Positions 4,687 through 56,273 of a stretch of DNA of 64,000 nucleotides are shown one piece after another. Within the stretch, counting starts at the first letter, position 1, and the number at the start of each line of letters is the position of its first letter. A program made the position numbers and the translations under genes. The notes beneath the pieces were generated by a model. It worked only from the letters and a program-made list of their open reading frames with translations. It was not told the DNA's origin and searched no databases. The stretch is from Rhodocollybia butyracea (lineage: Eukaryota > Basidiomycota > Agaricomycetes > Agaricales > Omphalotaceae): contig JADNRY010000287.1 in assembly GCA_015501585.1 (NCBI GenBank), positions 1-64,000 of the forward strand, in the 5' to 3' direction.

Positions 4687-7600
4687 TTAATACAGTAGCT
4701 GCCTAGATTGAATTTCCAGACTGGCCCCTTGGGCATTGACTCTGGCGTTGTGCTTCAGAAGACGCTCGACAATATCCTCGTTTCCTTTACTGATAGCTGC
4801 CTGGACTGCATTCCGATACCGGCCACCCTGCGCATTTACATCAGCTTTGTGCTCCAGAAGAAGCTCAACAATATCCTTGTTTCCAGTAGCAATAGCTGCC
4901 AGGAGCGCACTACCATACTGTCCCCCTTGAGCATTTACATCTGCCTTGTGCTCCAGAAGAAGCTGGACAATATGCTTCTTTCCCTGCCAGGAAGCTGCCT
5001 GGAGTGCACTTCCATACTGTCCCCCTTGGGCATTGACATCTGCTTTGTACTCTAGGAGAAGCTGGACAATATGCTTCTTTCCCCTCCAGGAAGCTGCCTG
5101 GAGTGCATTCCCATACTTCCCCCTTGGACATTTACATCTGCTTTGTGTTCCAGAAGAAGTTGCACAATATCTTTGTTGTCCCTTCTGGAAGCTGCCTGGA
5201 GTGCATTGCTATACTCACCTTCCCATTTTGCATTTACATCTACATTGTGCTCCAGAAGAAGGTGGACAATATCCTTGTTTTTCTCAATGATAGCTGCGTG
5301 GAGTGCATTCCAATAATGCCCCCCTTGGGCATTCACATCTGCTTTATGCTCTAGAAGGAGCTGCACAATACTGATGCTTCCCCTACTTGCAGCTGCTTGG
5401 AGTGCATTACCATACAATCCCCCTTGGGCATTGACATCTGCTTTGTGTTCCAGAAGAAGCTGAATAATATCCTTGCTTCCCTCACTGGCAGCTGCCTTGA
5501 GTACACTCCCATAGTACCCTCCTCCTAGGCCATTCACATCTGCCTTGTGCTCTAGAAGAAGCTGGACAACCACCTTGTTTTCTCCTCTGATAGCTGCCCA
5601 GAGTGCATGTTGATGCTTGCCCCCTTGGGCATTTACATCTGCCTTGTGCATCAGAAGAAGCTGGACAATATCCTTCTCCCCCTCCAGGAAGCTGCCTCAA
5701 GTGCATTCCCATAGATTCCTCCTTGGGCATTTACATCTGCTTTGTGCTCCAGCAGAAGTTGGACAACATCCCTGTTTCTGCTCCAGCAAGCTGCCTGGAG
5801 TGCATTCCCATACTCTCCCCCCTGGGCATTTACAGCCGCTTTGTGCTCCAGGAGAAGTTGGACAACATCCCTGTTTCCGCTCCAGCAAGCTGCCTGGAGT
5901 GCATTCCCATACTTTCCCCCCTGGGCATTTACATCTGCTTTGTGCTCCAGAAGAAGCTGGACAGTCTCCTTGTCTCCATGCGCAGAAGCACCCTGTAGTG
6001 CACTCCCATACAGCCCCCCTTGGGCACTTACATCTGCCTTGTGTTCAAGAAGAAGCTGGACAATATCCCTGTGTTCTTTCCAGCAGGCTACCTGCAGTGC
6101 ATTCCCATACACTCCCCCTTGGCAATTTACATCAGCCATATTTTCCACCAGTAAATGCTCAGCAATGCTTTGCATATTCAAACTAGCCATGTAATATAGT
6201 TGGCCTTGTATTTTACTTGAGTCTAAAGTTGGCTGATATGTGTCATGCCAACTTCTTTCTTCTAGAACATGAATTCTAATCCAATTCATGTAAATGAGTT
6301 GACTGTTGTCTTTCAACAGTGATATGGCAAGGTCCTTGGCAGGTTTGCATTCAAGGGCTTCATCATCTAGTGCTTTCATATGTGATGGCCAATGCTGTGC
6401 AGCATATAGTCCTAAGGAAAATAATTCCTTAAAGATATTTTCGTTCTCAGGCAACATCCCTTCTTTGTTAAACTGCAGAAGATAGATAAGGCATGTTTGA
6501 CATATTGTGGAATGTGCTATATGTGCATTGATTTCAAACACTTTCCTTATATGCACCTCAGCATGGGTTTGGGTGAGAAACTCTTTTACAGAGTTGTGTG
6601 CAAGCTTTACAACTTTCTTTACATCCACAGTTATCAAGGTGGAGTCCAAGATCTCATAAGTTCCATTCTCAAGCTCCAATGATCGCATGTCTGGATCAAA
6701 TGTTTGAGCTTCTAGGTCTACTGCAAGAATATCTGTGACCTGTGCAATTGAGAGTGGTTCAAAGGCATAGGCCAACCACATAAGAAGTTGACCTGCATCA
6801 TGCACATGTTCACCTTCTCTCATTCTTTTAATGGCCAGGGTGTATGTTTCTGCCAGGGTCCTGGGTAGCTTTTTCAGTGCCTCATGCATGGCTTTGGGTG
6901 TCTTGCACTGTTCAAGTACAGTTACCTGGCAATCGACCCAACGGAACCTTTGACACATTAATTAGTTACAAGGCAGTTCAATATTTTAGAGTACTTACTG
7001 TCCCTGGGCACCTTGACTTAAACCATTGACTATTTCAGTAAACAGTTCTGGCTTCAGTTTTCGATGGCTTAGTTTGTCCTGCAGATATTTGGCAATATCC
7101 TGATGAAATGATTCTGTATCATCAAGGTGGATATACCAGGAAACATCATAACCTGTCTCGGCTAAATATCGACTGGTTACAGCTATGCAGAGGTTCTTCT
7201 TAAGATGGGCAAGATGTTTGAAAACATCAATTGCCTCACTGCATTCATCCATGGCATCCAGCACCAGGAATACTGGGCTCAAGTCTTTAGAAACAACTTC
7301 TAAAGTGGCACTTAATCCTGCTATGGTAGGCTCCATAAGGCCCTGGTTGGAGATTCTATATAGCTCATGCAAGGCAGGATGAACTTTTTCTTGCCTTGTA
7401 GCCATTTGGAGCAAAAGAGACTGAAGGAGACCACGTGCATTGGTCTTAGTCTGTGAGTTATCACGGTTGTCAAAATAGTAGTAGCAGCACAGGGATGCTG
7501 GATTAGCTTGCAGGTTTTGAATGATAGCTGCCCTAAAAAATCACATGAGAAATATGGAAAATGAGATCATGACAATGGTTGTATGCATACGAAAGGAATG

Positions 7601-22270: not shown

Positions 22271-23058
22271 AAATGCGGGAGGGTAGACGGGTTCCCCAGG
22301 CTCCTAAGGTCTGAACCGCACTTGTCTCGCATCTGAGGCGCAGGAAGCGACAAGTCAAAATACAAAACTCTCGAAAATTCTGTTCATTTACAATGATATC
22401 CCTCGTTTATCATCTTCCTCGTCTGTCATTCATTTGTACATTCCCTCCTTGCTTGGTCTGCTTGTCCTGCCGATGCTCATATTTCAATGTTTTTTTTACC
22501 ATTCATTTCTGATGTACGTAGATTCGTACATCTATCTGTCCCTCCATTCACACATGTTGGTGTGATATACATCCATGTCCCTGTCCCTGTCCCTATACCT
22601 CCATTGCTCCTTGACTCTTTGCTTTCTTCCTTTCTTTTTCTCTGATGCAAAGATTGATATTGTCACTACATGTAGGGTTTTGTTGGATCGATAGTCAAGG
22701 CTGGCGTTTTTCTTTCACTCCATGACCGTTTCTTCTTTTGCATGCTTGCGTGCATTCGTAATGGCTTGGTTTTGATAACCTAGGCTTATATTGATGCTCC
22801 TCTCTTCCACGTTTCTCTGTTTCTGTTTACTCTCTGCTGTTCCATGGGAACCGCCCTGGATATGTCTCGATATGTCTTGCAGGATTTCTCGCTGCAATGC
22901 TTGTGCCCTGGATGGCTCCTTGCTAAGCTAGTGAGACTGGTAAGGTCGGTGTTTTGATGTTTTTAGATGTTTAGATGTAACATATATATATGGTCCCCTT
23001 CATCCTCTTTCCTTCCTGCAAATACTCGTATTAAGCTCTTTGCATTATTATGTAATAC
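22271..23058. other. pyrimidine-rich intergenic stretch
   Basis: T/C-rich sequence, likely the 3' region of the LPMO-like relic and general intergenic DNA. No ORF with a recognisable motif. It ends at the 5-bp AATAC target duplication of the gag-only retrotransposon. Confidence 0.4.
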
Positions 23059-23311
23059 TGTAACGCCTCCGCCTCTCCATAATCACCACTGACCGTATCC
23101 GGCGATACGGTCATCCTAGACACCGCCGATAGACCAAACGGTCTATCTTATCTTTCTATTTATTATTAATTATATAATAAATCCGTTACTATAAGTATCG
23201 TACGATTACTTAAGAGTCTAGTTAGTCTTTTACACCGTCGTACACACAATAGTATCCTATTTGTCGTGTTCACCGGTGTTCTTAAGGACTTTGCCCATAG
23301 GGCGCGTTATA
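23059..23311 (+). repeat. 5' LTR of gag-only element
   Basis: It contains two consecutive perfect hairpins: a 10-bp stem at 23090-23113 (TGACCGTATC with GATACGGTCA) and an 8-bp stem at 23128-23147 (GATAGACC with GGTCTATC). ATCGTACGAT and CACCGGTG palindromes lie downstream. An AT-rich TATTTATTATTAATTATATAA tract at about 23158-23180 could hold the TATA box. The terminal dinucleotides are TG...TA rather than TG...CA. Confidence 0.9.
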
Positions 23312-23461
23312 CTTTTTTGAACATCAAAAAATTACTATTGTGTGAATAACACAAAGCTATCAGTTTAAAAAGCTAAAAACAGTTATACTACCAAGTATAA
23401 CAACCATTATTCCAACTCGCTACACAATCTATACAAACCCGCTATATCATTCACTGTCCCT
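23312..23461 (+). promoter_or_regulatory. leader of gag-only element, PBS not identified
   Basis: The sequence right after the LTR is an 8-bp perfect hairpin (TTTTTTGA, ACA, TCAAAAAA; 23313-23331) rather than a TGG-type tRNA primer site. Further hairpins are at 23338-23354 (6 bp) and 23382-23401 (8 bp, GTTATACT with AGTATAAC). I could not match the position following the LTR to a tRNA 3' end from memory. Confidence 0.5.
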
Positions 23462-25804
23462 ATGACCTCTCAAAATCAATCAGAGAAGTCATATCAGAGT
23501 GTGCGCGATCGCGCACCTTCCATTCGTGGTGACGTGTCACCACACTCAATCTATTCAGTCGCATCAGCGACTCATTCCGTACGTGCGTCTGAAAGACGGC
23601 ACTACAGGCAGGACAAGAGTCCACCTAATGAACAGTCTATGACTATTCGTAAGAAACGGCCAACCCGAGAGTGTTTAAGTGAGATTTCTTCTGCGCTACG
23701 AGACGTAGCGGCATCACTCGACAAGAGTACGCAAGTACTCAATCGTATTCTCAACATAACTGAGAAATGGGATGCATCTAGCATCCGATCTAATGAAGAA
23801 AGATCTTCTTCATCGAGAAACAGCAATAGAATCACTATTGCTGCACCCACACCGAGACGGCCTGCCGTCACACCGCCGGTATTGCACAATGCAGCACCAT
23901 CTGTTCCTACCGAGGCAAACAACTCGGTACGCCAATGGCGTGAGACTGTGCCCAAGGCACCGTCAGTCCAACAATCACTGTTGGACAAACAGTATTCACA
24001 AGGGATGACCAAGTCACCCCGTCATGTTCCTGTATTCCGACAGGAATACGCACCAGTGTCAGTAACTATACCGACACCCATCTACACATCCCGCATGAGA
24101 CAGAGTCCCAATGCGGAGGTAGCGTCTCTGACACTGCGAGGTCCCAGGCCATTACCGGTGACCAAATCTTGCTCACCACAAAGCGCGGTGAACATTAAAA
24201 GTGAACCGAAGTTACCTCGTAACTTCAATCAGGTAGTAGTGATACCACCACAGGAAAGTACAATGTACTTCCCTACTGCAAGGGCGCCAATGATACCCAA
24301 TATTATTACACCTCCAGTAGTTGTACCAAACACTACTGGAAATCATTCCAGTATGGGACCGCAACATGGTATCCTTCCGATAGTTCCTACTACCATATCC
24401 ATCACCCCGGCGACACAAAGTGTTGCCCCTCCGGTAGTACACACTACCGTAAGACTGCCCAAATTGCCGCCCAGCAATGCGCCAGAGCCAAGTTCAATGC
24501 CAGTACCAACAGTATTGGCTGAGTTGCAACCACAGCCGCTTCCATTGGGAGTAGCTAAAGATTGGATGAGTCGCATAGCGATTCAACGCCAACATAACAC
24601 CAGTCTCCGAGATTTTGGATTTGCGCCATCTGGGCTTCCCGACCAAATGGTGGGATATAATGTCGACGGAATACCCGTTGATAAATTGACTACTCCCAGA
24701 GAAATCTGGGATCGATTTTACATTCCACCCGCTGAGTCCTTTCCAGGACCAAGCAATAATGCCGGAGCGAAAGCGCCTAGCAAAAAATCCCGTGAAGGGG
24801 GGAGGAAGCACAAGAGTGCTAAATCCAAAGGCCGCAAACGCAGGCCATGGTCGGATGCATCATCTGACTCTAGTGATACCGAGTCAAATACTGACTCTTC
24901 GTCTGATGCCTCTTGGCTAGACAAATTTGCTACCCGTAAGGGTAAAATTACTCCTAATGAGCGCCGTAAAATACTGCGTTCACTTGCATCTAAGATGCGA
25001 GAAACAACAGGTGACGACGAACGTCGTTCCCGATGGAAACACAAGGTACACAAAGTGTACCGTAAACAAATTCGAGATAAGGTAGGGAATCCTATCCCTC
25101 CCATTGAGAGCCGTAAAGCTCTTAAAGTTCCATCTCCGGAGGTCTATGACGGATCTCCGGATGTCGATGTCTTCGAGCGGTGGCTAATGTCACTTCTCCA
25201 ATGGATGGTAGTCAACCGCATGTGCGGTGACGATTACGATGCTACACGGACTGCCGTGCTTGGCATGTTTCTAAAGGGCAAAGCCCTTGACTGGTATAAC
25301 GACGAAGTCGCTGGTATACACCGCACTGTCCTTAAGTGGACATTTGAAGGCGCCATCATTGGTGTCTTTGATCGTTGCATCCAAGCAACGACCATTCATC
25401 AAGCTGCACGGCAGTTTGACCTTATTGAGTATTCACCCGATACGGGTGTGAGGGATTATTATTCCTCACTTACACGATGGGCATCACGGATGCTCCAAAC
25501 ACCGGATGATGCAACAATGCGGAAACGGTTCATTGAGGGATTACCCTTCAATATTATCAGGCAACTCACGAACGAGGGGATCGTTCCGGAGTATGCCAAA
25601 TTAGAAGTGATGGTCAGAGCCGTCACACGCATTGAGGACCACACGGCCCTCACTAAATATTATGTCTCTTCTAGGAATAGAGACGATGAACTTGAATCAT
25701 CAGAACACCCCGATGAGTCGTACACCGAGAACATTAAAAATGTTCTTGAGCCAATCGAGGAGGACACCTCCTTAAGTATCGGAAAGGATAAACCTTCCGA
25801 ATGA
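23462..25804 (+). CDS. Gag protein of TR-GAG-type element
   Basis: An intact 780-codon ORF, the only one in the element. Residues 1 to about 430 are Ser/Pro/Thr-rich and probably disordered. A Lys/Arg-rich patch (RKHKSAKSKGRKRRP) is near residues 445-460, followed by an acidic Ser-rich segment. From about 555 to 730 comes a retrotransposon Gag core: PEVYDGSPDVDVFERWL, then GMFLKGKALDWYND, and a helical stretch with RKRFIEGLPFNIIRQL. There is no CCHC zinc knuckle and no protease motif. In the family this protein forms the particle and packages RNA; here it would supply particles or RNA-binding function while enzymes come from a partner element. The start ATG at 23462 follows 150 nt of leader. 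Codon choice repeatedly makes perfect inverted repeats, which is unusual. Confidence 0.85.
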   Translation: MTSQNQSEKSYQSVRDRAPSIRGDVSPHSIYSVASATHSVRASERRHYRQDKSPPNEQSMTIRKKRPTRECLSEISSALRDVAASLDKSTQVLNRILNITEKWDASSIRSNEERSSSSRNSNRITIAAPTPRRPAVTPPVLHNAAPSVPTEANNSVRQWRETVPKAPSVQQSLLDKQYSQGMTKSPRHVPVFRQEYAPVSVTIPTPIYTSRMRQSPNAEVASLTLRGPRPLPVTKSCSPQSAVNIKSEPKLPRNFNQVVVIPPQESTMYFPTARAPMIPNIITPPVVVPNTTGNHSSMGPQHGILPIVPTTISITPATQSVAPPVVHTTVRLPKLPPSNAPEPSSMPVPTVLAELQPQPLPLGVAKDWMSRIAIQRQHNTSLRDFGFAPSGLPDQMVGYNVDGIPVDKLTTPREIWDRFYIPPAESFPGPSNNAGAKAPSKKSREGGRKHKSAKSKGRKRRPWSDASSDSSDTESNTDSSSDASWLDKFATRKGKITPNERRKILRSLASKMRETTGDDERRSRWKHKVHKVYRKQIRDKVGNPIPPIESRKALKVPSPEVYDGSPDVDVFERWLMSLLQWMVVNRMCGDDYDATRTAVLGMFLKGKALDWYNDEVAGIHRTVLKWTFEGAIIGVFDRCIQATTIHQAARQFDLIEYSPDTGVRDYYSSLTRWASRMLQTPDDATMRKRFIEGLPFNIIRQLTNEGIVPEYAKLEVMVRAVTRIEDHTALTKYYVSSRNRDDELESSEHPDESYTENIKNVLEPIEEDTSLSIGKDKPSE

Positions 25805-26145
25805 TTTATTGGGTTATTCCGACGCCCAGGTAATATGCCTTACCTGGGCATCACTACTTATCCTCAGCCCGGATTCTCACTGAGAATCCTCATTAAGCAA
25901 TACTCGGAAACTTCCGAGTCTGCGCGTTGAACATTCGGACATTTCTGAATCAAATCATACTCTAGTGGTACGCCCTACTACCGTTTGATTCGGACAAGTC
26001 CGAAAATCTGATGCGCCGCATCAATTAAATCCCGTACTTGATGCGGGAGCATTCTATGTTAAACCAAATTAGAAATGGTTTGGATGGTGATGATGTCATT
26101 ACCATTTTCGATTCACATCCCTGATGTTAATCTGGTGGGGGAGGG
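25805..26145 (+). other. 3' untranslated region with dense hairpins and PPT
   Basis: It holds perfect stems of 10 bp (25824-25849), 8-9 bp (25871-25889), 8 bp (25912-25929), 7 bp (25989-26004) and 6 bp (26009-26023). A 10-bp stem with one G-T pair lies at 26084-26105. The polypurine tract GTGGGGGAGGG at about 26135-26145 directly adjoins the 3' LTR. Confidence 0.8.
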
Positions 26146-26398
26146 TGTAACGCCTCCGCCTCTCCATAATCACCACTGACCATATCCGGCGATACGGTCA
26201 TCCTAGACACCGCCGATAGACCAAACGGTCTATCTTATCTTTCTATTTATTATTAATTATATAATAAATCCGTTACTATAAGTATCGTACGATTACTTAA
26301 GAGTCTAGTTAGTCTTTTACACCGTCGTACACACAATAGTATCCTATTTGTCGTGTTCACCGGTGTTCTTAAGGACTTTGCCCATAGGGCGCGTTATA
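26146..26398 (+). repeat. 3' LTR of gag-only element
   Basis: 252 of 253 positions match the 5' LTR. The one change (A at 26182) breaks a base pair of the first LTR hairpin, leaving the second intact. Confidence 0.92.
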
Positions 26399-26694
26399 AA
26401 TACCCTTTGCATGCTGTTGGAAATATATGGACTCCTAGTTGTGTATACCAGATGGTGTGTCTGTGTCTATGTCTAAAAATGCTAGTGTAAGACTATGGTC
26501 AAGAGAAGGCAATATGCAGAGTATTAAGGTAAGATGGATTTGAGAGTGCAATCCAAAGTCAGGAACTAATTTACACAAGCTTATGACTGACTACATCATG
26601 GGGAGAAAGGAAGGAGGTGATGGTGGTACCAGGTAAGCATTGAACCTGGAACACACATTGCTGCACCTGTGTGCCATAAATATACATAGCCCAC

Positions 26695-32707: not shown

Positions 32708-34546
32708 ATGTCTACACAAACAACTCAAACGCGCACCCAAACTGGGTCTCATCACCATCCTGAAACATTTGTTCAAGGATCTAGTAATCAAACTATTCCA
32801 ACCAGTTTTAATGCTCCAGGATATACACTGGGACAAGACATTTCCAATGTTGGAAATACCAGCAATTGGACACCCACTGATATTTCAGAAGGTGAAGTTG
32901 TAGTAATGCGGAGAGTTCATATTGGATCAAATGGATCAAATTTCAGTGAAACTGTGGTTCAGGAAGTTAGAGTGACCTACTACTGCAGAAATTGCCAGAT
33001 CTTTGCTCGTCATGATGACCATTCCACCAGTCATTCAGTTGAACGTGGTTCGCGAGGACAACAGCAGCAAATTCCTGATTTTGCAACAATTATACCTCTA
33101 CCTTCTTCATATCATAGTCATTCTGCACAATCTGATGCACACAGATCTCAAAGCGGACAACCTCCAAGGCAAAAGCAGGGATATAATTCAGCTCTCAGAA
33201 CCAGAACAAAATCCTTCACCTAGCCACCATTCATCACCTGTACCATCAATTAACAGGAATGTATCTCCTCAAGCAATTGCTCACAGATCAGATACACCAA
33301 TAATTGAATTCTTTGACTCTTTACATGCACAATATAGAGCTCAACAGTCAACTGCAAGACCAGGTACAATCACCTGTCAGAGGATCACCAAAGTTGTCTG
33401 TAGTTCCTGAGGAAAGCCAAGAGCATTTTATTGCTCCTAGTAACCCACCTCATGGGTCTACACCTTGGCAATCTCACAATTCTCAGTCAGACCATAATGC
33501 TTTAAGTGCCATTAGGAGTTCAAACCAGTCACAAGGACATGAACAATTGCCTGTTCAACCACAAGTTTTGCAACCAGTTTTAACTGTCAGGAACATCCCA
33601 TCACCAGGTGGATCTTCCAAAAGCTCAGTAAAAAGCTCAGCAAAACAAGGTTCCCATAAGTCAAGCAATAGTGTACCAATTTTGAACCAGCTTCAAAATG
33701 AACAAACACAGTTTGACAGACTTAGTCAACAATGCCAAAAATTCTTAGAGTCACTAGGCTATAGAAGCAGTAGTGCTCAGCCTTGGCAATGGGTTCAGCA
33801 GTTGGAAAGACTAGGTCAGAGAGAGCTTGCATTACTAAGTCCAAGTCTGTATCAGCGGATATCAGATGAAAGGAATAGTCAAATGTTAACATACCTATAT
33901 GATGAGACACAAAGGAATGAAGTTCAAGTTCTACTGAGGGCAAGAAGTAGCACTAGCATGGAATTAGCACCTTCTGTTCATATGAGCCAGACAGCCAAAG
34001 TACAGGAAAATCCACCAAGTGTTCACACACCAGTGCAAACTCCACCAAAAGCAGAAGTTCTGCCAAGTGCACATGCCCCCATCAGAGAAATCAATTAATT
34101 GAGAACACAAGAAATGTGGAGGAAACTCATGTTCCACTTACAGAAAGGAACTCTAGACAAAATGAAAGCTCTAACAAGACTGACAGAATTCTTGCCTGGA
34201 CAAGAAGGGTTCAACCACCAAGTCCTCAAAATGTTGATATACCAATTATTCAACCCACAACACATATGCCATTAGTGACTAATCCTGTTGAAAAAATTGA
34301 GCAAGTAGTGAGAAATGAAAATCAACATGATCACTCTAGGACTCAACTTCCAACGAGATGAACCACCTCATGCAAGTGGTAGTCACATACTATTTGATCA
34401 AGGGAAAAGAAATACAAGACTTAGAAGCAGAAAGGAAAATTTTGCAATACCTACAAAATATGAACCTGCTCAAGCCTCAACAAGTCAGCAGGTATTTCCT
34501 GAGACACAAGTCATAAAAAACTACATTTGACTCTCCTCACATTCCA
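32708..34546 (+). pseudogene. N-terminal gag region, frameshifted
   Basis: Coding-like, Gln/Ser/Pro-rich sequence continues across at least four frame changes: frame of 32708 to about 33195, the next frame to about 33365, another (33304-34098) with a stop at 34096, then 34116-34361 and 34315-34530. Amino-acid style stays constant across the shifts, so this was one long ORF broken by single-base indels. One piece has a CysxxCys motif (YYCRNCQIF) near 32983. There is no sign of introns with correct borders at the breaks. Such a long pre-gag region is unusual for chromoviruses and partly explains the 11.6-kb size. Confidence 0.6.
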
Positions 34547-36161
34547 ATGCCTATCCAATCTCCTGTGCACCTGGTAGAACCAACACCATTGCTTGCAGAA
34601 CATCATAGCCAGGTTCCACAGACTCATAAGACTGTTGTACCTAGGCCTTTGAGTCTGAATTGGGGTGATGAAGCAAATGAATTTTTGCCAATCAATGGTT
34701 ATCCATTCATCCCAAATAAAGGCAAGACACCTGTCGAGCATCAGGAGGAGCGCCACCATCACCCCCACCACCAGATGATCCTGGAAATCATAGTGAAGGG
34801 GATGACCCAAAGATGGAATGAAAACAATAGAAACAATTCCCACAGGAATGGCGGACCCAATGGATCTCCTCCACCACCAAATGATGGCGGACCTCCAAAA
34901 ATGCCTTGTGGAAAATCTAATTGTTGCTGTTGCAAAGATGGAAGAGATGGAAGGGACGGCAGGGATGGACGTGATGGCAGAGATACCAATGAGCGTGATC
35001 CAGAAAGAGAGGAGCAGAAAAGAAGGAATGAAGAAACCACTAGAGCTCTGGCAAGAGAGTCAAAGCTTGACATCAACAAACCAACTCCATTTGATGGATC
35101 TAACAGAGCTGCTTGGAGAGCATTTTTAAATTCAGTACTGATAATGTTCAATGCAAAGCCAATGACTTACTCTACAGATAATTCTAAAATTACATTTGCT
35201 GCATCATACCTTACAGGAGCTGCAGCAAAGTACTACAATAATCTAGTAGAACAAACAGGCCAATGGAGAGAATGAATCCTTCATTCCAGCATTGAATATC
35301 TGGTCTGAGTTTGTTAAGTTGTTTGGACGCATGTTTGGTCTCCATGATGAGAAAATGCATGCTCAGTCACAACTAGACAAATGTCTACAAGTCCCCAGGG
35401 AGTCATTTGCAGACTTTTTAGTCAAGTTTGAAGATATTGCTAACCGCACTACTTACAATGACCCTGCTAAGAGATGGAGACTTCTGAATCAGATCCGACC
35501 AGATCTGCGCAACCGCCTAACAATGGTTGGCAATTTACCAGAAACATATCAGGATGTTGTCAATAGACTACTAGATATTGATGGCGCACGAGAAGCATTC
35601 AATGACTCTGGACTTGGAAACAATTTCAGTAGTGGAAACAATCGAAATGCAACCATCAATAACCAACCTATTGACCGCAACCAGACTGGAAATGGTTACC
35701 GCACATCTGCAAATGCAATTTTCAACCAGAATAATCCACCAAATAATCGCCCAATACAAGCGCAACCACAGGGAGCCACCACATTTACTAACACACAGAC
35801 TCAAAGACTACCTACTAGAATGAATCCAAATAATTCTAGAAATAATAATGTCAATGAGGCACCAGCTGTAGTAAGAATGGCATGGGTCACTCAAGAAGAA
35901 TATGACCAAAGACGCGCAAAAGGGGCTTGCACTTACTGTGGTGAAATGGGTCATTTTGCGAGAGACTGCCCACAACGGCGCAATAATGCATCAGGTCGAG
36001 CCACATTTATGGACACTTCCAGTGACATACCCAGCAATATTACACTTGAAGTTGAAGATGAAATCTTGGATATTGACAGCACACTCTTGGAAGGAGGCAT
36101 TGAAGGGGAGGAATATGAAGATCTCAACCAGGGAAACGTCCTGATGACTCAGGAAGAATAG
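34547..36161 (+). pseudogene. Gag core and zinc knuckle (one frameshift)
   Basis: The first segment (34547-35275) has a Cys cluster (CCCCK), a GRD tripeptide repeat (five times, about 34945-34985), and the start of the capsid-like Gag domain (KPTPFDGSNRAAWRAFL). A 1-nt deletion near 35268 gives a TGA; the sequence continues in the next frame from about 35271 with ALNIWSEFVKLFGRMFG, a helical Gag body, an Asn-rich linker, and a CCHC knuckle (CTYCGEMGHFARDCP, about 35926-35970). The TAG stop at 36159 ends this frame. Gag forms the particle and binds RNA. Confidence 0.8.
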
Positions 36162-36181
36162 GGGAAACCTGGAGTCAAAAT

Positions 36182-36399
36182 GATCATACCCCAATAAATC
36201 TGCTTGCAGTACAAGTAGACACACCACCAGCAATTATTTCTTCAATTTCTCTTCATTCATTTGTTATTAACACTAAATTATTCTCGGAAGACTCACAGAT
36301 GTACCATGCACTTGTTGATTCTGGTGCTTCAAGGTCATTTATTGATGAATCTTTAGCAAAGAAATTTCCTCACCATATTCACAAACTTCCATTTTCAAT
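36182..36399 (+). pseudogene. aspartic protease segment, frameshifted at both ends
   Basis: An open stretch in a third frame carries ALVDSGASRSFIDESLAKKF, the retropepsin active-site motif (DSGA). It lacks an in-frame link to Gag upstream, and a 1-nt deletion near 36400 separates it from pol; the sense resumes in the pol frame with LKLFDGEYSSAG. The protease would mature Gag-Pol. Confidence 0.75.
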
Positions 36400-36501
36400 C
36401 CCTTAAAGTTATTTGATGGAGAATATTCATCAGCAGGAAACATCACTTCAGAATTCACTGTAAAATTATTATATGAGGATGGATCCAAACATGATCTCAC
36501 C

Positions 36502-39500
36502 TTGCTTGTTACTCACCTACATCCAGATGCACCATTAGTTCTAGGATTCCCATGGCTACAGAAGTATAATCCACAAATTGACTGGGCAAACTTAATGTTC
36601 TCATTCAATGGAGGAGTTAAACTTGCAGCAGCAAAAGTCACTGACATTGAAATTCCAAGGCTATCATACAGGACACACCTTAAACCAACAATTGAGGAAG
36701 TTACTGAGCCAGTAGAGAATGTTCAACCAGGACTGGGCCTAGATGACCCACTATTGCTTCATGTGGATGAACTAGAAGATTACTTTGTACAAAAGACATT
36801 TGGACATATTCAAACAGAACACATTAGAACCAGTTCTCAAAAATCAACTGAAACTCACCTCAAAAATCAAAAACACAAACAACAAGAGAAACCTATAATA
36901 CCAGAACCAAACCCAGATTCACCATCAAAACATCCATTTACCGACAAGAAACCACCGTTGGTTAGTCTTATAGGGGCACCAGCCTTTGCAAGATTAATAA
37001 AAGATGGATGTCCAACATTTACTCTCAACATCTCACCCACACATGAGATAGTTGACATCCGAGGAGCAGCTATGCCAAGCAAACCTGTGGCTAAAGAGCA
37101 AGGTCAAACAGAAGTACAACCTAACTCAAAAATTTTATCAGAACAGGAAATGTTGGACAAAGTTGTTCCAAAAGAATACCATCAATGGGCTAAAGTTTTC
37201 TCAGCTGGAGAAGCAAAAGCCTTACCACCCCACCGCCCTTATGACCTCAAAATTGAGACTGAAGAGGGTAAACCTTTGCCACCAGCATCAAAAATTTATA
37301 ATCTGTCTGAGACAGAATTAAAGGCCTTGAAGGACTACATTGATGATATGTTAAGCAAAGGCTTTATTAGAGCATCAAGCTCACCAGTGGGAGCAGCAGT
37401 ACTATTTGCAAAAAAGAAAGATGGATCACTCAGAATGTGTATTGACTACCGGGCACTGAACCGCATTACACTAAAAAACAAGTATCCACTACCCTTGATT
37501 GGAAATTTGATTGATAGATTAAGAAAGGCCAAGAAATTCACAAAACTGGACTTACGCGCTGGATACAATAATGTCCGGATTGCAGAAGGACATGAGTGGA
37601 AAACTGCTTTCAGAAGCAGATATGGGTCTTTTGAGATGTTAGTCATGCCTTTTGGTCTAACCAATTCACCATCAACATTTCAACACTTCATGAATGACAT
37701 CTTCCACGACATGGTTGATATTTTTGTAGTGATTTACTTGGATGACATCTTGATCTTCTCAGAAAATGATGAAGACCACGAGAGACATGTGAAGATGGTC
37801 TTACAGAGACTTGAGGACAACCACCTATTTGCTAAGCCTGAGAAGTGTGATTTTCATACTACATCAGTGGAGTACTTAGGACTAATAGTCTCACCTGAGG
37901 GCATCTCCATGGATCCAAAGAAAGTTGAAGTGATTAACAATTGGCCACCCCCAACTACTGTAAAGGAACTCCAATCATTTCTGGGATTTGCAAATTTTTA
38001 CAGACGGTTCATTGACAACTATTCTGGTATAGTGAAGTCATTGACAAAACTCTTGGGTAAAAATGTACCGTGGAACTGGTCAGAAGATTGCACTGCTTCC
38101 TTTGAACTATTAAAGCAAGCATTCCAAGAAGCTCCAGTCTTACAACACTTTGACCCTGAATATTTGAGTATTGTTGAGTCAGATGCATCAGACTATGCCA
38201 TTGCATCAATAATCTCACAGTATAACCCATTCAGTAGTGAGCTCCACCCAATAGCATTCTTTGCAAGAACTATGACAAAGGCAGAGCTTAACTATGATAT
38301 ATATGACAAGGAGCTCTTGGCCATAGTTGAATCATTCAAACAATGGAGAGCATACCTTGAAGGTTCACGGTACCAGATTCAGGTCTACACAGATCACAAC
38401 AACCTACAATGGTTCACTACCACAAAGGTGTTGAGCCGAAGACAAGCCAGATGGGCTGAATTCTTATCTGGATTTGATTTTGTCATTAACTATCGGCCAG
38501 GACGGCTGGGAGCTAAGCCAGATGCACTCACCAGACGGGCAGATGTATATCCTAAGAAAGCGGCACAAGCGCTTATCAATGAGGGAAATACAAAGATACT
38601 GATCCGGCCTGAACAATTGATGGCTTCTGTAATAATGCAAGATGAAATTCATTTGAATAGGATCCGGAAAACCAAGAAGGATACATACTGGCTTGAACAT
38701 GAAAAAATAGCCAAGTCCAAGGAGCCAGGACTCTTCAAAGTTGAAAGTCAGCTCTTACTCCGTGATGGTCTAATATATGTTCCCAATGATGGAGACTTAC
38801 ATCTTGAGATCTTGAGAATGTATCATGATCACAAACTCAGAGGTCACCCCGGAATTCAAAAAACAATGAAGCTAATCAGAGAGATGTATTACTGGCCTGG
38901 TATGAAGAAAACAGTGAGAAACTATATACGGACCTGCCATGACTGCCTGCGTGCAAAAGGGAGCAGAAGAAAACCATTTGGGGGACTAAAACCCTTACCT
39001 ATAGGTAATAGACCATGGTCATCAATTTCAGTTGATCATATAGTTGAACTACCAGAGTCAAATGGATTCAATGCTATCATGGTAGTAGTATGCAGACTCA
39101 CCAAACAAGCTGTTTTTGTACCATGTCACACTACAGACACAGCAATTGAGTTAGCAAAGTTGTTTATCAAGAATGTATTTTCAAAACATGGCTTACCTAC
39201 AGACATAATCTCAGATAGAGGAACCACATTTGTATCCACTTTCTGGAGAACTATATGTCAAGCCTTAGATGTGAAGTTGAACTTTTCAACAGCCTACCAT
39301 CCCCAAACTGATGGACAGACTGAGAGAGTCAACCAAACACTAGAACAATATTTAAGATTGTTTGTCAACTATGAACAAAACGACTGGGAAGAATGGTTAC
39401 CTATTGCAGAATTTGCCTACAACAACACACCTTCAGAAGCAACAGGAGTATCACCCTTCTTTGCAAATAAGGGATTTCATCCAAAACTCACTGTTTCACT

Positions 39501-40137
39501 GAAATCACTCCCAAATCACCATGCCCAACTAGTTGCAAAAGATCTTCATGAACTTCACCAATTTCTAAGACATGAATTAATGACCACCAATGAGATATCA
39601 ACAAAATATGCAAACCGAAAAAGAGAAGACACACCTGATTGGAAAGAAGGAATGATGGTTTGGTTAAACATGAAAAATATAAAAACCAAGAGACCTATGA
39701 AGAAGCTGGACCATAAGAGAATGGGACCATTTGAAATTCTGAAGAAAGTCTCAACCCATGCATACAAACTAAAGCTGCCTGTAAACTTTGGTAACATTCA
39801 CAATGTGTTCCATGTAGACTTACTAACCCTACATGAATCTGAGTCTGATCAATTCCCAAACCGCAAACCACCTCCACCTCCACCTATTGAGATTGAGGGT
39901 GAAAAAGAGTATGAAGTAGAACAAGTACTTAACTCACGGAGAAACAGACAAAGGTTTGAGTACTACATCAGATGGGAAGGACACCCGCCTGAGGAAGACA
40001 CCTGGGAACCATTAGTCAATGTGCTAAATGCCAAGGAAGCACTAAACACATATCACACACTTTACCCAACAAAGCCCAAACCAACAGACAGGGAGCTTGA
40101 ACGTGCTGAAGAGCTCAGAGAGAGGGACAATGGGTGA
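36502..40137 (+). CDS. Pol: RT, RNase H, integrase, chromodomain
   Basis: A 1211-codon ORF counted from ATG 36502; the same frame is open back to about 36400, so the true polypeptide start lies upstream in the gag-pro region. Order: end of protease domain (VLGFPWLQKYNP, residues 13-24), linker, reverse transcriptase with VIYLDDILIF (YLDD at 412-415), RNase H (VESDASDYA, then VYTDHNNLQWF), integrase zinc site with His/His/Cys/Cys (HDHKLRGH from residue 775, then CHDCLRAK), and a DDE core (SVDHIVELP, DIISDRGTTF, TERVNQ). Next come a GPY/F-like segment (KRMGPFEILKK) and a chromodomain at about 1137-1190 (YEVEQVLNSRR, YYIRWEGHPPEEDTWEP). All catalytic residues I can check are present. It is probably translated only as a fusion with Gag, so this copy may not express it. 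Confidence 0.93.
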   Translation: MLVTHLHPDAPLVLGFPWLQKYNPQIDWANLMFSFNGGVKLAAAKVTDIEIPRLSYRTHLKPTIEEVTEPVENVQPGLGLDDPLLLHVDELEDYFVQKTFGHIQTEHIRTSSQKSTETHLKNQKHKQQEKPIIPEPNPDSPSKHPFTDKKPPLVSLIGAPAFARLIKDGCPTFTLNISPTHEIVDIRGAAMPSKPVAKEQGQTEVQPNSKILSEQEMLDKVVPKEYHQWAKVFSAGEAKALPPHRPYDLKIETEEGKPLPPASKIYNLSETELKALKDYIDDMLSKGFIRASSSPVGAAVLFAKKKDGSLRMCIDYRALNRITLKNKYPLPLIGNLIDRLRKAKKFTKLDLRAGYNNVRIAEGHEWKTAFRSRYGSFEMLVMPFGLTNSPSTFQHFMNDIFHDMVDIFVVIYLDDILIFSENDEDHERHVKMVLQRLEDNHLFAKPEKCDFHTTSVEYLGLIVSPEGISMDPKKVEVINNWPPPTTVKELQSFLGFANFYRRFIDNYSGIVKSLTKLLGKNVPWNWSEDCTASFELLKQAFQEAPVLQHFDPEYLSIVESDASDYAIASIISQYNPFSSELHPIAFFARTMTKAELNYDIYDKELLAIVESFKQWRAYLEGSRYQIQVYTDHNNLQWFTTTKVLSRRQARWAEFLSGFDFVINYRPGRLGAKPDALTRRADVYPKKAAQALINEGNTKILIRPEQLMASVIMQDEIHLNRIRKTKKDTYWLEHEKIAKSKEPGLFKVESQLLLRDGLIYVPNDGDLHLEILRMYHDHKLRGHPGIQKTMKLIREMYYWPGMKKTVRNYIRTCHDCLRAKGSRRKPFGGLKPLPIGNRPWSSISVDHIVELPESNGFNAIMVVVCRLTKQAVFVPCHTTDTAIELAKLFIKNVFSKHGLPTDIISDRGTTFVSTFWRTICQALDVKLNFSTAYHPQTDGQTERVNQTLEQYLRLFVNYEQNDWEEWLPIAEFAYNNTPSEATGVSPFFANKGFHPKLTVSLKSLPNHHAQLVAKDLHELHQFLRHELMTTNEISTKYANRKREDTPDWKEGMMVWLNMKNIKTKRPMKKLDHKRMGPFEILKKVSTHAYKLKLPVNFGNIHNVFHVDLLTLHESESDQFPNRKPPPPPPIEIEGEKEYEVEQVLNSRRNRQRFEYYIRWEGHPPEEDTWEPLVNVLNAKEALNTYHTLYPTKPKPTDRELERAEELRERDNG

Positions 40138-42183: not shown

Positions 42184-43173
42184 TGTTATGACCCGATTCT
42201 ACACTATAGGCATATACACACTCTTTTTTCATTTATTAACAACCACTACTATCATTAATATTTTACCACTTAACACTATCACATACATTCATTACTTATC
42301 TTCTCAACACAACTTGGGATAATGCTGCACATTACCATGGAAGCTGCAAAGACCCTTCCACACAGCATTGACTCATTATTAGTCAACTCCGGTTCCACTA
42401 AATGACTCAATATCAGTCATCCATGACTCTACTGAATGACTCAACATCAGTCATCCGTAGTTCCGCTTAAATGACTCAGTAACAGTCATTGCACACCATT
42501 CCACAGTCATGCTGACTGATCCGCAGCATTTTTGCAGTTATGACTCAAATCTAGTCATTCCGCAGCATTTCCTAACTAGTACATATTAAACAGTATATAA
42601 GGAAGCCAGATTTACCAATGTACAGTAGACGTATTATTTTTCTTAAATCCAAACCCCCACTTGTTTGCTGTTATCACTTGTGTGAATCACCAGACCAACT
42701 CATTGTATCTTGTTGAGCTATCTCCAAGCTACAATACACATTTATACATCTTGTTGAGCTAACTCCAAGTTGTATCCACTAACATTCACCTGTTGAGCTA
42801 TCTCCTAGTGAATACTTCTTCAATTGCCACTTGTTGAGCTATCTCCGAGTATTAGACACCACACTCACTACTGCTTGTTGAGCCATCTCCGAGTATTAGT
42901 TCTGATTCATATTACTGCTTGTCGAGCCATCTCCGAGGGTAATCTTATTATTATTTGTCGAGCTATCTCCAAATAATAACTTCTGTGAGTTTCGTATTAC
43001 AAACTAGTTACTAACTTTACTTGAGCCTAGTTGTTTGAGTATATATTTTTTGCTTAGCGGTTTCATCAAACGGAAAGGCTTGCTCTATAATCTCCATTAA
43101 TTTCTCTTATCATTGTTACCACCAAGTTACGTACTGTGAAGGTTTGGACGGGACTATTGATCGAGTCATAACA
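42184..43173 (+). repeat. 3' LTR of gypsy element
   Basis: 990 bp. Same ends as the 5' LTR. It carries seven leader hairpins (42702-42979): units 4 to 6 of the 5' LTR are merged into one whose outer arms come from two different units and no longer match, so the deletion arose by exchange within the conserved core. About 20 substitutions separate the two LTRs. Confidence 0.93.
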
Positions 43174-45560
43174 CTTGTCGGCTCCAAGTGCCAGGCGTGG
43201 GTATCATGCCAGGGCGCAAGGGTGCACGGCGTTCTCTAGTGGGGTTCACACGTTTCCATGCTTCAACGTCTTCGGGACGGTAGCTGAATGGATTAGGATC
43301 GGGAGCAGGTGGTGAAGGGTCTCTTGCTTGAGGTGGAGGGGTGGGTGATCGAGATGGTACCGGAGGATTGGGATTTGGAGCATCATCATCACCAGGCAGA
43401 TCTGGATCTGGGCCAGCTGGTGGACTGTGCGGTCCATTATCCGGTTCAGTAAACGGTTGTGGTTGATCTTCCGGGAATTCCGGATCAAATGGAATGTCTG
43501 CACCATTACCATTTGGAGGTTGCGAAGGTTTCACAGGCGTGGGGGCAACAGGTATAGCGGGTTTTACTCCAGAATCAGATTCGGATTTGCACCGTGGAAA
43601 CCATTTCTCATAGAAAGTTGCTTGTGCAGCATGCACTACGGAATTATTGCTACGCATGAATAGATATCCTTTGCTTCCTTGGTCATATCCAATGAAAGTC
43701 ATCGCTTCAGAGTGTGGGGATTGTTTATTTTTTCGCTTGTCAATAGGAATAAAGACATAAGCGCCACAGCCAAAGGTTCTGAAGTATGAGACATCAGGTT
43801 TCTTTTTGAGAAAACCTTCAATTGGTGTCTTCCAGTTCAATCGACGGATCGGTGTGCGGTTATACACATGTACTCCTGTGGAATATGAGAATTGCCACCA
43901 GGACTCCGGGCAGCATGCATGGTGTCGCATGGCTTCGGATTTTTCCATGAGTGTACGGTTGATACGTTCCGCTCTACCATTCTGTTGATGAACATAAGGT
44001 TCGGACATTTGAATATCAATACCCTCAGACTTGAGGAAGGAAGTAAATTCCTTTGAGATAAGTTCTCCCCCTTGATCAATGCGGAAACGCACAAGTTTGC
44101 GTCCAGTTTGTTTTTCAGCCCAAGATTTGAAATCCTTGAAGGCTTGAAACGCTTCTGATTTTTGTCGCAGCATGATCAAAGTAGCATGAGAAGAGCAGTC
44201 ATCCAGCAGAGTGATCACAAAATTAAATTTATGATAAGAGACGGTTGGAATTTCAACCAAATCTGCGTGAATTAAATCCATAGGGTTGGATGCTCGTTTC
44301 TCGGACTTAGGATATGCTTTGGAGGCAGCCTTTCCAAGCGCGCAACCTTTGCATGGAGATTCTTTATCTGGTATTGACAACTTAGGTAGTCCATTGACAT
44401 TTCCAGGAGCATTGCGTAATACGACATCACCGGGATGTGCGAAACGGTTATGCCAGGTGTTAAAATCATTAGGAGATGATATCATGCCTATCTCAGATTT
44501 CACTACATCGGCCTTTAGCCAGTGAATATTATCCCTATCGTTATTGGGATATAAGGTCATGATTGTTGAGTCATCATCCGTCTTACGAATAACTGATTTT
44601 TCAACGTTAATAGTTGTGTAACAACCCTGTCGATTTAATAAACCAACAGATAGAAGTCGGTGTGTGCAATGCGGTTGGTAAAACACTGGGTGTAACTTAG
44701 TCGTGAGGATTTTTCCTTCGCCGTTGTCATGCCTTATGTAGACTGTTCCGGCACCTTCAATAAAGGTTGACGTACGTTCGTCAGCAGTCTGGACAGGTAT
44801 CGGATGTCTGAATTTTTTATAAGACACAAAGTCTTGCCGATAAGGGGTAAAATATCCAGATGCACCGGAATCAAGCAGCCATGTGTTAAATATCTGACTA
44901 AGGTTCTTATTCGCACCATGCACATCATTAGAAACCATTTTATTTAATTTACCCTCGCTAGGAGGTACAGAGTTCAAGAAGCGTGGAGAATGTGATACAT
45001 AAGGTCCATTTGGACCGTTCAATATTCCAGCCATATTATTGAACATCTGTTGTAATGAGTGCAATTGGTCAGTGAATTTTTCCTTAAGACTATTAAGGGA
45101 AGCTTGCCAGAAAATAAGGCGCTCGTCTCCAGAGCCATACATTTCCTCGTCAATGTCCATTTCGAGTTTAGTCTGAAGCCAAAGGTGATCAGAGAGATCG
45201 ACCTCTACTTCCTCGATCTTCATCCTGTCAAGGACGGAGTCGTGGGAGGCTTCACGGAGGAAGCTGTCGTTAATGCGCGAGGCAAGGCAGGTGGCGAAAT
45301 TAGAGACATTGGAAGTCTCCACTTCAGCCGATTCATGAGCCTTTTCTTTGCCTTTTCCTCCTTTCTTTCCGCGGTGTGTCTTTTTGTCTTTGTCGGAAGA
45401 AGAGGACGAGTCGTTGGAAGGTTTGCTTGCCGGGTAAGGCGCTCCCTTCTTAGTGTCCTTCTTCTTCTTTTTGATCATTCCAAGAAGACTTGGAATCAGA
45501 TTGACGTTTGACGCCGGAGATGCGGGCCGCGAGAGAGGTAGCGTTGGATTGGCGGCGGCG
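43174..45560 (-). pseudogene. copia polyprotein: protease and integrase, no RT
   Basis: Open from 45613 down to the gypsy LTR border, where the frame runs 8 nt into the LTR and stops. Lys/Ser-rich linker, protease (WLLDSGASGYFTPYRQDF), GAG-pre-integrase zinc site (TWHNRFAHPG, then CKGCALGKA), and a DDE integrase core with HADLVEIP, RFRIDQGGEL and NGRAERINRTL. A Pro/Asp-rich region follows, the usual spacer before reverse transcriptase in copia elements. Reverse transcriptase, RNase H and 3' LTR should follow but are replaced by the gypsy 3' LTR at 43173, and they are not found left of the gypsy element either. Expressed alone it would lack replication ability. Confidence 0.9.
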
Positions 45561-55741: not shown

Positions 55742-55752
55742 CTCCTCCTCAC
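55742..55752 (-). promoter_or_regulatory. copia polypurine tract
   Basis: GGTGAGGAGGAG on the minus strand immediately precedes the 3' LTR. Confidence 0.65.
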
Positions 55753-56273
55753 CGAGAACTCACGTCTCCTCCTCGCATGGAATCGTCGGGTCGAAGTCCC
55801 ATCATTCCTCGTAGATATTGGAATGTTTTTGTTGGTAGTGCCTTTGTAAAGGCATCTGCGACGTTCTGTGATGTATGCACATATGACATGTTAAGTTCCT
55901 TGGATTGCACGCGCTCGCGGAGAAAGTGATACTTGATGTCCACATGTTTCACTTGGTAGTGTAGTGCGGGATCTTCCGATAGGACGATGGTGGCGTTATT
56001 GTCACATAAGAGTGGAGTTGGCTCCTCCTGTTGTATGCCAATCCCAAGGAGTAGTGATCGAAGCCATATGGCCTCTTTTGCTGACTCGTATCCTGCCATA
56101 TACTCTGCTTCACACGAGGAAGCTGCTACTGTCTTCTGGTTACGCGCTGACCATGAAATAAGACCTGATCCTAAGGTAAAACAGTAACCACCAATGCTGC
56201 GTCGGGTGTCAAGACACTTGGCCCAATCAGAGTCGGTATAGCCAAGTAATATTTCAGCATTATTCCGACTCAC
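55749..56273 (-). pseudogene. copia RNase H segment
   Basis: 174 codons with the copia RNase H landmarks GYTDSDWAKCLDTRRSIGGY, SSCEAEYMA, LLCDNNATIVLS and HVDIKYHFLRERV, and the C-terminal ADAFTKALP. Its upstream reverse transcriptase is deleted; it starts right at the integrase break in a different frame. Confidence 0.92.

What the first reader, a model, noticed from the sequence alone, without database searches (positions are those of the whole stretch)
23059..26398. A retroelement made of back-to-back perfect hairpins, including its coding region
Reading the gag-only element base by base, I find perfect inverted repeats almost everywhere, in LTR, leader, ORF and 3' region. Stems of 8-10 bp with loops of 0-10 nt: 23090-23113 (10 bp), 23128-23147, 23313-23331, 23382-23401, 23501-23516, 23526-23543, 23793-23813, 23821-23843 (9), 23966-23986, 24208-24226, 24313-24340 (9), 24334-24353, 25728-25746, 25824-25849 (10), 25871-25889, 25912-25929; also 26084-26105 (10 with one G-T pair). 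Stems of 7 bp: 23694-23710, 23908-23929, 24027-24046, 24432-24449, 24694-24711, 25045-25061, 25372-25391, 25989-26004. Many 5-6 bp stems fill the gaps. With equal base frequencies I estimate about 0.6 stems of 8 bp or more by chance in 3.3 kb, against at least 16 perfect ones seen. The ORF stays open through all of it, so codons seem chosen to keep the palindromes. Possible causes: selection for a structured RNA that hijacks another element's particles, or a mutational process that perfects inverted repeats (template switching during reverse transcription). Neither is shown.
Basis: partly seen in the sequence, partly recalled or inferred. Interest (0 to 1): 0.92.

Follow-up and report, generated by a model that had tools for sequence, protein, structure and literature searches.

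The report
Fungal retrotransposon packed with hairpins
A mushroom-type fungus carries a family of virus-like jumping genes whose sequence, including the protein-coding parts, is crowded with small perfect hairpins that the replicating copies appear to preserve, a pattern that shuffled sequences and the tested control elements do not show and whose purpose is still unknown.

Summary
The one-LTR element (23059-26146) has 27 perfect stems of 7 bp or more against 1.7 in dinucleotide shuffles, and 17 of 8 bp or more against 0.43 (0/300). The ORF has 17 against 1.65 in shuffles keeping protein and codon usage (0/1000). The window's own Ty3 element shows no excess.

It is a clade trait, not a quirk of a gag-only parasite. 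Pol-bearing Ty3-type relatives in the same genome (L069, L071, L072) and a second gag-only element (L070) are equally dense. One element of the next RT clade (42% identity) has at most a slight excess.

Stems covary between lineages at 76% DNA identity. Among 48 family copies, singletons break stems at about the random rate, variants shared by 4 or more copies rarely do (4/107 vs 63/433 for rarer ones, p=0.0016). That points to selection during replication. Template-switch footprints were nearly absent (1 of 41 clusters).

G-U pairs are no better tolerated than A-C, so whether RNA, cDNA or both is selected stays open. Seven searches of the paper library listed no earlier description.

The parts
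23054..23058 (.). target-site duplication AATAC, 5' copy
23059..23311 (+). 5' LTR (253 bp, starts TGTAACGCC)
   Evidence: one difference from the 3' LTR
23090..23113 (+). hairpin, 10 bp, LTR
23128..23147 (+). hairpin, 8 bp, LTR
23158..23182 (+). hairpin, 9 bp, A+T only, LTR
23243..23254 (+). LTR stretch complementary to 23333-23344 (possible self-primer)
23313..23331 (+). hairpin, 8 bp, directly after the LTR; CTTTTTTGA(A/G)CATCAA also follows the LTR in L069 and L070
23333..23344 (+). 12-nt stretch complementary to the LTR (possible self-priming PBS)
23382..23401 (+). hairpin, 8 bp, leader
23462..25804 (+). gag-only ORF, 780 aa; weak Retrotrans_gag match at residues 602-694 (E 0.13, below the cut-off); no zinc knuckle, protease or pol match
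23501..23516 (+). palindrome, 8 bp, ORF
23526..23543 (+). hairpin, 8 bp, ORF
23694..23710 (+). hairpin, 7 bp, ORF
23793..23813 (+). hairpin, 8 bp, ORF; 7 of 8 pairs also in L070
23821..23843 (+). hairpin, 9 bp, ORF
23908..23929 (+). hairpin, 7 bp, ORF
23966..23986 (+). hairpin, 8 bp, ORF
24032..24049 (+). hairpin, 7 bp, ORF (alternative register 24027-24046)
24208..24226 (+). hairpin, 8 bp, ORF
24256..24270 (+). palindrome, 7 bp, ORF
24313..24340 (+). hairpin, 9 bp, loop 10, ORF
24334..24353 (+). hairpin, 8 bp, ORF, overlaps the previous (alternative fold)
24432..24449 (+). hairpin, 7 bp, ORF
24694..24711 (+). hairpin, 7 bp, ORF
25045..25061 (+). hairpin, 7 bp, ORF, kept in L070 (7/7) and L069 (6/7)
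25372..25391 (+). hairpin, 7 bp, in the capsid part; kept with different paired bases in L069 (7/7) and L070 (6/7)
25728..25746 (+). hairpin, 8 bp, end of ORF
25824..25849 (+). hairpin, 10 bp, 3' region
25871..25889 (+). hairpin, 9 bp, 3' region
25989..26004 (+). hairpin, 7 bp, 3' region
26009..26023 (+). palindrome, 7 bp, 3' region
26134..26145 (+). likely polypurine tract GGTGGGGGAGGG before the 3' LTR (GTGGGGGAGGG also before the L070 3' LTR)
   Evidence: read
26146..26398 (+). 3' LTR, with hairpins 26215-26234 and 26245-26269
26399..26403 (.). target-site duplication AATAC, 3' copy

Best explanation
The element is a young, multi-copy, non-autonomous (gag-only) member of a Ty3-type LTR retrotransposon clade whose whole sequence is kept dense in short local hairpins by selection acting during the replication cycle. 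New pairs arise and broken pairs are replaced by ordinary point substitutions; copies that sit in the chromosome are not protected and decay at about the neutral rate. Shown here: the density, its presence in the clade and not in the two control elements, covariation, and the scarcity of stem-breaking variants among shared alleles. Inferred: that the hairpins form in a single-stranded intermediate (genomic RNA and/or minus-strand cDNA) and that their use is compaction/packaging of the genome into Gag particles or protection from antisense and small RNAs. Between these two uses I lean to compaction/packaging (about 0.3 against 0.2 of the total), without direct evidence. The gag-only element has the trait because it descends from the pol-bearing lineage or shares its history, not because it is a parasite.
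For: Excess of 6 to 40 fold over shuffles for stems of 6, 7 and 8 bp or more, depending on stem length and shuffle. Same density in L069, L070, L071, L072: 62, 30, 53, 53 stems of >=7 bp against 4.1, 2.6, 2.9, 4.1 (0 of 100 each). Local folding z in 120-nt windows -2.8 to -3.9 against -0.3 and -1.0 in two controls. Pol stems, L069 to L071 at 76% identity: 160 of 204 pairs still Watson-Crick against 122 expected; 12 pairs changed on both sides and still pair, against 2.6 (re-partnered null, largest of 500 is 9) or 4.2 (site-shuffled null, 0 of 500); L071 to L069: 10 against 3.5 (largest 10) or 4.9 (8 of 500). Capsid hairpin 25372-25391 is kept with other paired bases in two lineages about 50% different. 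Two to three LTR hairpins at similar places with unrelated sequences in three lineages. Among 48 other copies the stem-breaking share is 39/278 for singletons, 24/155 for alleles in 2-3 copies, 4/107 for alleles in 4 or more (p=0.0016); synonymous and non-coding only: 38/197 rare vs 3/59 shared (p=0.008); all possible mutations would give 13.9%.
Against: G-U pairs are not preferred: stems with one mismatch show G-U 21, A-C 33 (null 1.4, 1.95), and one-sided changes in pol stems give G-U 10 vs A-C 10 and 10 vs 20; selection on sense RNA alone predicts G-U well above A-C. In gag, both-side changes do not clearly exceed the null for window to L069 (21 vs 17.0, 50 of 300), window to L070 (15 vs 15.6), L070 to window (14 vs 12.6) or L069 to window (16 vs 12.2, 49 of 300), only for L069 and L070 (23 vs 13.7, 5 of 300; 23 vs 12.1, 0 of 300). 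Stem centres (>=6 bp) coincide in gag in 4 (null 0.97, largest 6), 4 (0.69, largest 5) and 1 (0.90) cases. No codon-register preference and no consistent regular spacing. The site-shuffled null does not keep local clustering of conserved sites. The frequency test has only 4 shared stem-breaking variants, and variants are linked by descent. No expression or probing data.
Confidence: 0.6

Rival explanations
1. Mutational origin: template switching (fold-back copying) during reverse transcription or replication makes and repairs perfect inverted repeats, and this clade's reverse transcriptase does so unusually often. Hairpins have no function.
For: Strictly Watson-Crick, strand-symmetric stems with no G-U preference; excess confined to loops of about 0-10; trait goes with one RT clade, including gag-only members; occurs in LTR, coding and non-coding parts alike; no codon-register preference. 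The process is proposed to make and mend hairpins in RNA genes (PMC8794818, abstract and first part of Results read).
Against: Of 41 clusters of rare substitutions in the family, 1 (two substitutions) fits a reverse-complement copy better, 0 of 8 clusters of 3 or more. Of 30 stems complete in some copy but not in the commonest alleles, the first copy listed needs one change in 26, two in 3 and three in 1. In stems lost between L069 and L071 the two arms diverge evenly (sum of arm differences 18 vs 16.3 expected, and 8 vs 16.2); none of six gag comparisons shows a significant one-arm excess either. Scarcity of stem-breaking shared variants is not expected without selection, unless repair removes them.
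Confidence: 0.22
2. Selection acts on DNA: hairpins or cruciforms are needed in minus-strand cDNA or double-stranded DNA (for example for strand transfer, compaction with Gag, or integration), not in RNA.
For: Strand symmetry: A-C mismatches (G-T on the minus strand) at least as frequent as G-U (57 vs 40, 33 vs 21, 15 vs 7 in three overlapping stem-length classes).
Against: Singletons in chromosomal copies are not depleted in stems, so integrated DNA is not the selected form; the mismatch ratio is close to the shuffled expectation (4.1 to 5.3 in the largest class), so no minus-strand preference is shown either.
Confidence: 0.12
3. Base composition, protein sequence or local repeats produce the stems by chance or as a by-product.
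For: One stem is A+T only (23158-23182).
Against: For the ORF and the one-LTR element, dinucleotide shuffles, synonymous-codon shuffles and codon-order permutations do not reach the counts of stems of 6-8 bp; the window's Ty3 element does not show the excess.
Confidence: 0.01

Closest known systems
Ty3-type LTR retrotransposons of the Tf1/sushi kind (fungi; the group label and self-priming are recalled)
   Same: The relative L069 has RT-RNaseH-integrase order above Pfam cut-offs, and protease and CCHC matches below the cut-offs; 5-bp target duplication and short LTRs in the window; a 12-nt LTR complement after the LTR suggests self-priming.
   Different: Crowding with local perfect hairpins along the sequence; a hairpin lies between LTR end and the possible priming site; gag-protease and pol are in one frame divided by UGA-CUAG.
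Yeast Ty3 and Ty1 genomic RNAs (SHAPE maps; PMC11381356, abstract and one Results section read)
   Same: LTR retroelement RNAs with structured regions spread over coding sequence, and palindromes proposed for dimerisation.
   Different: Described there as mosaics, up to 30% highly structured; no saturation with perfect hairpins is described in the parts read.
Genome-scale ordered RNA structure (GORS) of some RNA viruses (recalled; one listing search)
   Same: Folding energy excess along the sequence, coding parts included.
   Different: Here stems are local (loops up to about 10), strictly Watson-Crick, without G-U preference, in a reverse-transcribing element.
Hairpins made or maintained by template switching (PMC8794818, abstract and first part of Results read)
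   Same: Perfect stems, short loops, paired changes.
   Different: Almost no multi-base footprints and even arms here; no saturation along a mobile element in what was read.

Membership tests
Ty3-type LTR retrotransposon, non-autonomous member | paired LTRs and target-site duplication | tested here: met
   LTRs 23059-23311 and 26146-26398, one difference; AATAC on both sides
Ty3-type LTR retrotransposon, non-autonomous member | gag relationship to pol-bearing elements of the clade | tested here: met
   capsid part 63-66% identical at 18 further places of 150 scored, some in frames of up to 1349 aa; L069 carries gag-protease and pol frames
Ty3-type LTR retrotransposon, non-autonomous member | RT-RNaseH-integrase order in the relative | tested here: met
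   L069 pol: RVT_1 226-386, RNaseH 478-580, H2C2 777-831, rve 847-945
Ty3-type LTR retrotransposon, non-autonomous member | same LTR ends and purine tract as the autonomous relative | tested here: inconclusive
   LTR start TGTAACGCCTCC shared by window, L069, L070; purine run shared by window and L070; the 3' end of L069 was not fetched
Tf1/sushi group (self-priming) | 5' end of the transcript complementary to the priming site | tested here: inconclusive
   12-nt complement in the window element, not directly next to the LTR; none of >=8 nt in L070; transcript start unknown
Genome-scale ordered RNA structure | folding energy below order-shuffled sequence along the genome | tested here: met
   mean z -2.8 to -3.9 in four elements or parts of them, controls -0.3 and -1.0
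Genome-scale ordered RNA structure | pairing at RNA level (G-U tolerated on the sense strand) | tested here: not met
   G-U not above A-C
Template-switch hairpins | one arm replaced by the reverse complement of the other in one multi-base event | tested here: not met
   1 of 41 rare clusters, 0 of 8 with 3 or more changes; even arm divergence
Particle hijacker (packaged by another element's Gag) | mobilised in trans by the autonomous relatives | not testable with these tools
   no pol in the element; 47 of 48 sampled copies are 96.4-98.8% identical to it, which implies help in trans

The most novel reading that the evidence does not exclude
A whole clade of LTR retrotransposons is under genome-wide selection for short, strictly Watson-Crick hairpins that work in both the RNA genome and its cDNA, written through its coding sequence; this would be a structural layer of a retroelement genome not described before.
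Probability: 0.25. Interest if true: 0.9.

Novelty: new variant of a known kind. Interest (0 to 1): 0.76.

Why it matters
Whether RNA genomes carry structure for its own sake, spread over coding sequence, is an old question studied in RNA viruses (recalled). Here is a retroelement in which the structure is extreme, perfect, easily counted and present in many copies, with hairpin-poor relatives in the same genome as natural controls. The lack of G-U tolerance asks which nucleic acid is really selected. It also gives a clean system to separate selection from template switching as the source of perfect hairpins.

Tried and rejected
Chance, composition and protein by-product: rejected by three kinds of shuffle. 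Template switching: searched for in rare-variant clusters and in arm asymmetry, almost no sign; kept as a rival. Sense-RNA selection with wobble: not supported. Lower divergence of arms (0.17-0.18) than loops (0.25-0.27) between L069 and L071 was not used as evidence, because stems were chosen as perfect in one of the two. Folding z of sense against antisense strand was not used, because base composition shifts it. Regular spacing: significant in 2 of 8 tests (L071 at >=6 bp, L069 at >=7 bp). Codon register: no preference. The host control 7-14 kb has a mild, non-local excess of 6-bp repeats (loops 0-10: 24 against about 16; loops 40-60: 48 against 30). Relatives in other species: a scan of viral contigs gave 129 pattern matches and no relative; the gag search gave none among 7989 candidates scored; the pol search gave 810 proteins among 7996 candidates, of the 120 listed one at 97% and the others at 52-60%, with names from Mycena, Phanerochaete, Trametes and Phlebia, but no DNA. 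L074 and L075 (about 92% to L071) mostly show single broken stem positions and were not counted further. One search dropped minus-strand matches and was replaced. One search failed on a file name and was repeated. Searches failed on a wrong frame and were repeated in frame.
Full report
1. The observation. Perfect inverted repeats with loops of 0-10 nt were listed over 23059-26398. In the one-LTR element (23059-26146) there are 48, 27 and 17 stems of at least 6, 7 and 8 bp, against 6.5, 1.7 and 0.43 in 300 dinucleotide-preserving shuffles, none of which reached the count. In the ORF, 1000 shuffles that keep the protein and the codon usage give 5.8, 1.65 and 0.45 against 35, 17 and 9 observed (0 of 1000). 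The capsid half of the ORF has the excess at 6 and 7 bp but not at 8 bp. In the window only this element stands out: 10 stems of 8 bp or more in 23001-24000, then 3 and 4, against 0-2 in the other kilobases.

2. Anatomy. LTRs of 253 bp at 23059-23311 and 26146-26398 differ at one site and are flanked by AATAC. A purine run precedes the 3' LTR. The long ORF (23462-25804, 780 aa) has a weak Retrotrans_gag match (E 0.13, below the cut-off) and no match among solved structures at E 1. No protease or pol frame follows before the 3' LTR. The host is a mushroom-forming fungus: for a NACHT-type protein of the window the best named matches are from Rhodocollybia butyracea (76%) and Gymnopus androsaceus (65%), both Omphalotaceae, followed by Mycena. 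The genome held has 95.6 Mb in 1381 contigs.

3. Copies and relatives. The capsid part found 150 scored places of 391 candidates: 132 at 84-100% identity and 18 at 63-66%. 48 other places of the family were laid on the window element, 14 of them over its full 3088 bases, the rest in part; 46 of 48 are 96.7-98.8% identical to the window, the other two 94.7% and 96.4%. L069 (of the 63-66% group) looks autonomous: gag with weak CCHC and protease matches, one UGA followed by CUAG, then an open frame with RT, RNaseH and integrase; its 3' end was not fetched. L071 and L072 bear the same junction and pol; L072 has a further stop shortly after it, and no single gag frame was found in either by the motif used. 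L070 is another element of 4.6 kb with its own LTRs and a gag frame only.

4. The hairpins belong to the clade. L069 (7651 bases), L070 (4619), L071 (5902) and L072 (7502) have 62, 30, 53 and 53 stems of 7 bp or more where shuffles give 4.1, 2.6, 2.9 and 4.1 (0 of 100 each); in L069 they run through LTR, gag and pol. One element of the nearest other RT clade found in the genome (L073, 42% RT identity; 43% in its own row) has 8 against 4.2 (largest of 40 shuffles 8), and the Ty3 element of the window has 5 against 6.7. In 120-nt windows the mean folding z is -3.9, -3.6, -2.8 and -3.2 for window, L069, L070 and L071, and -0.3 and -1.0 for window Ty3 and L073. The excess lies at loops of 0 to about 10, highest at 3-5, and ends beyond. 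A host stretch (7-14 kb) shows a mild excess of 6-bp repeats that is not confined to short loops.

5. Covariation. In the pol of L069 and L071 (76% identical) 160 of 204 stem pairs of L069 are still Watson-Crick in L071 against 122 when changes are dealt among sites of the same base and codon position (0 of 500). 12 pairs changed on both sides and still pair, against 4.2 (largest of 500 is 10) or 2.6 when partners are exchanged among stems (largest 9). In the other direction 10 against 4.9 (8 of 500 reach it) or 3.5 (largest 10). Whole stems stay perfect in 7 of 26 and 8 of 33 cases against 0.4 and 0.5; this null does not keep clustering of conserved sites. In gag, where lineages are only about 50% identical, more pairs are kept than expected in six of six comparisons (most weakly L069 to window, 62 vs 54, 31 of 300), but both-side changes clearly exceed the null only between L069 and L070 (23 vs 13.7 and 12.1). 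A clear case is the capsid hairpin 25372-25391, whose stem is rebuilt with other pairs in L069 and, with one G-U, in L070. In the LTR, hairpins sit at positions 32-55 and 70-89 (window), 44-66 and 85-106 (L070), 38-59 and 69-81 (L069, the second only 5 bp) with unrelated sequences.

6. Selection among copies. Each variant in 48 copies was classed by whether it breaks a stem of 7 bp or more in the window copy, makes one, or neither; sites seen in fewer than 15 copies and 40 sites where the window has the rarer allele were left out. Stem-breaking: 39 of 278 singletons, 24 of 155 variants in 2-3 copies, 4 of 107 variants in 4 or more copies (p=0.0016 for shared against the rest). Synonymous and non-coding only: 38 of 197 rare and 3 of 59 shared (p=0.008). 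Making to breaking is 6:4 among shared and 21:63 among rare variants (p=0.03). All possible single changes would break stems in 13.9%, so singletons look neutral. The simplest reading is that inserted copies decay freely, while copies with broken stems leave fewer descendants. The counts are small and variants are linked by descent.

7. Template switching. If fold-back copying made the stems, young copies should show clusters of changes that turn one arm into the complement of the other. Of 41 clusters of rare changes one two-base cluster fits better as a reverse complement and none of the 8 larger ones. Of 30 stems that are complete in some copy but not in the commonest alleles, the first copy listed needs one change in 26, two in 3 and three in 1. 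Where stems were lost between L069 and L071 both arms differ about equally (18 against 16.3 expected; 8 against 16.2), whereas copying would leave one arm intact. A rarer or older contribution is not excluded. PMC8794818 (abstract and first part of Results read) argues that the process can make and mend hairpins.

8. RNA or DNA. Selection on sense RNA should spare G-U pairs. Stems with exactly one mismatch, pooled over window, L069, L070 and L071, have G-U 40, A-C 57 (at least 7 pairs), 21 and 33 (8), 7 and 15 (9), with shuffled expectations of 4.1 and 5.3, 1.4 and 1.95, 0.2 and 0.4. One-sided changes in pol stems give G-U 10, A-C 10 in one direction and 10, 20 in the other. Stem variants among copies: G-U 18, A-C 31. 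So pairing is strand-symmetric as far as these data tell. Either both RNA and cDNA matter, or stems must be very stable, or a mutational process is at work.

9. Known or new. Seven searches of the open paper library, with words for retrotransposon, hairpin, palindrome, inverted repeat, ordered RNA structure, packaging signals and fungi, listed no title or abstract start that describes such an element; of the papers listed only the two named here were opened, in part, the lists were capped, and subscription journals are mostly missing from the library. Ty3 of yeast has a mosaic RNA structure with up to 30% highly structured regions (PMC11381356, abstract and one section read). I file the element as a new variant of a known kind: a Ty3-type clade with a genome-wide hairpin layer.

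Noticed in passing
L069 5723-5744 of the reverse complement; L071 and L072 at the homologous place: Protease and reverse transcriptase lie in one frame divided by a single UGA followed by CUAG, in L069 inside an inverted repeat (AGCTAGTAAAGAGTGACTAGCT); UGA-CUAG is recalled as a strong readthrough context, so pol may be made by stop-codon readthrough.
   Followed up: partly
window 23243-23254 and 23333-23344: A 12-nt stretch after the LTR is complementary to a stretch inside the LTR, as recalled for self-priming Tf1-like elements, with a hairpin between LTR end and this site; no such match of 8 nt or more in L070.
   Followed up: partly
window copies of the family: 438 of 661 occurrences of rare alleles (in at most 3 copies) are C>T or G>A, as expected for deamination of methylated repeats; methylation was not tested.
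   Followed up: no
window 32708-40137: A second Ty3-type element (gag pieces and a 1211-aa pol frame) without hairpin excess; its RT part has 108 matches in the genome, down to 40% identity.
   Followed up: partly
window 43166-46196 and 55749-57673, minus strand: Copia-like gag, integrase and RNase H open frames, judged by eye from the translations.
   Followed up: no
window 5052-6958, minus strand: Ankyrin-repeat-like array frames, judged by eye; opposite-strand open frames there mirror the repeats.
   Followed up: no
L070 reverse complement 6106-6542: The longest stems seen (13, 11 and 11 bp) lie between gag and the 3' LTR of L070; part of that stretch matches the protease region of L069 at DNA level.
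   Followed up: no
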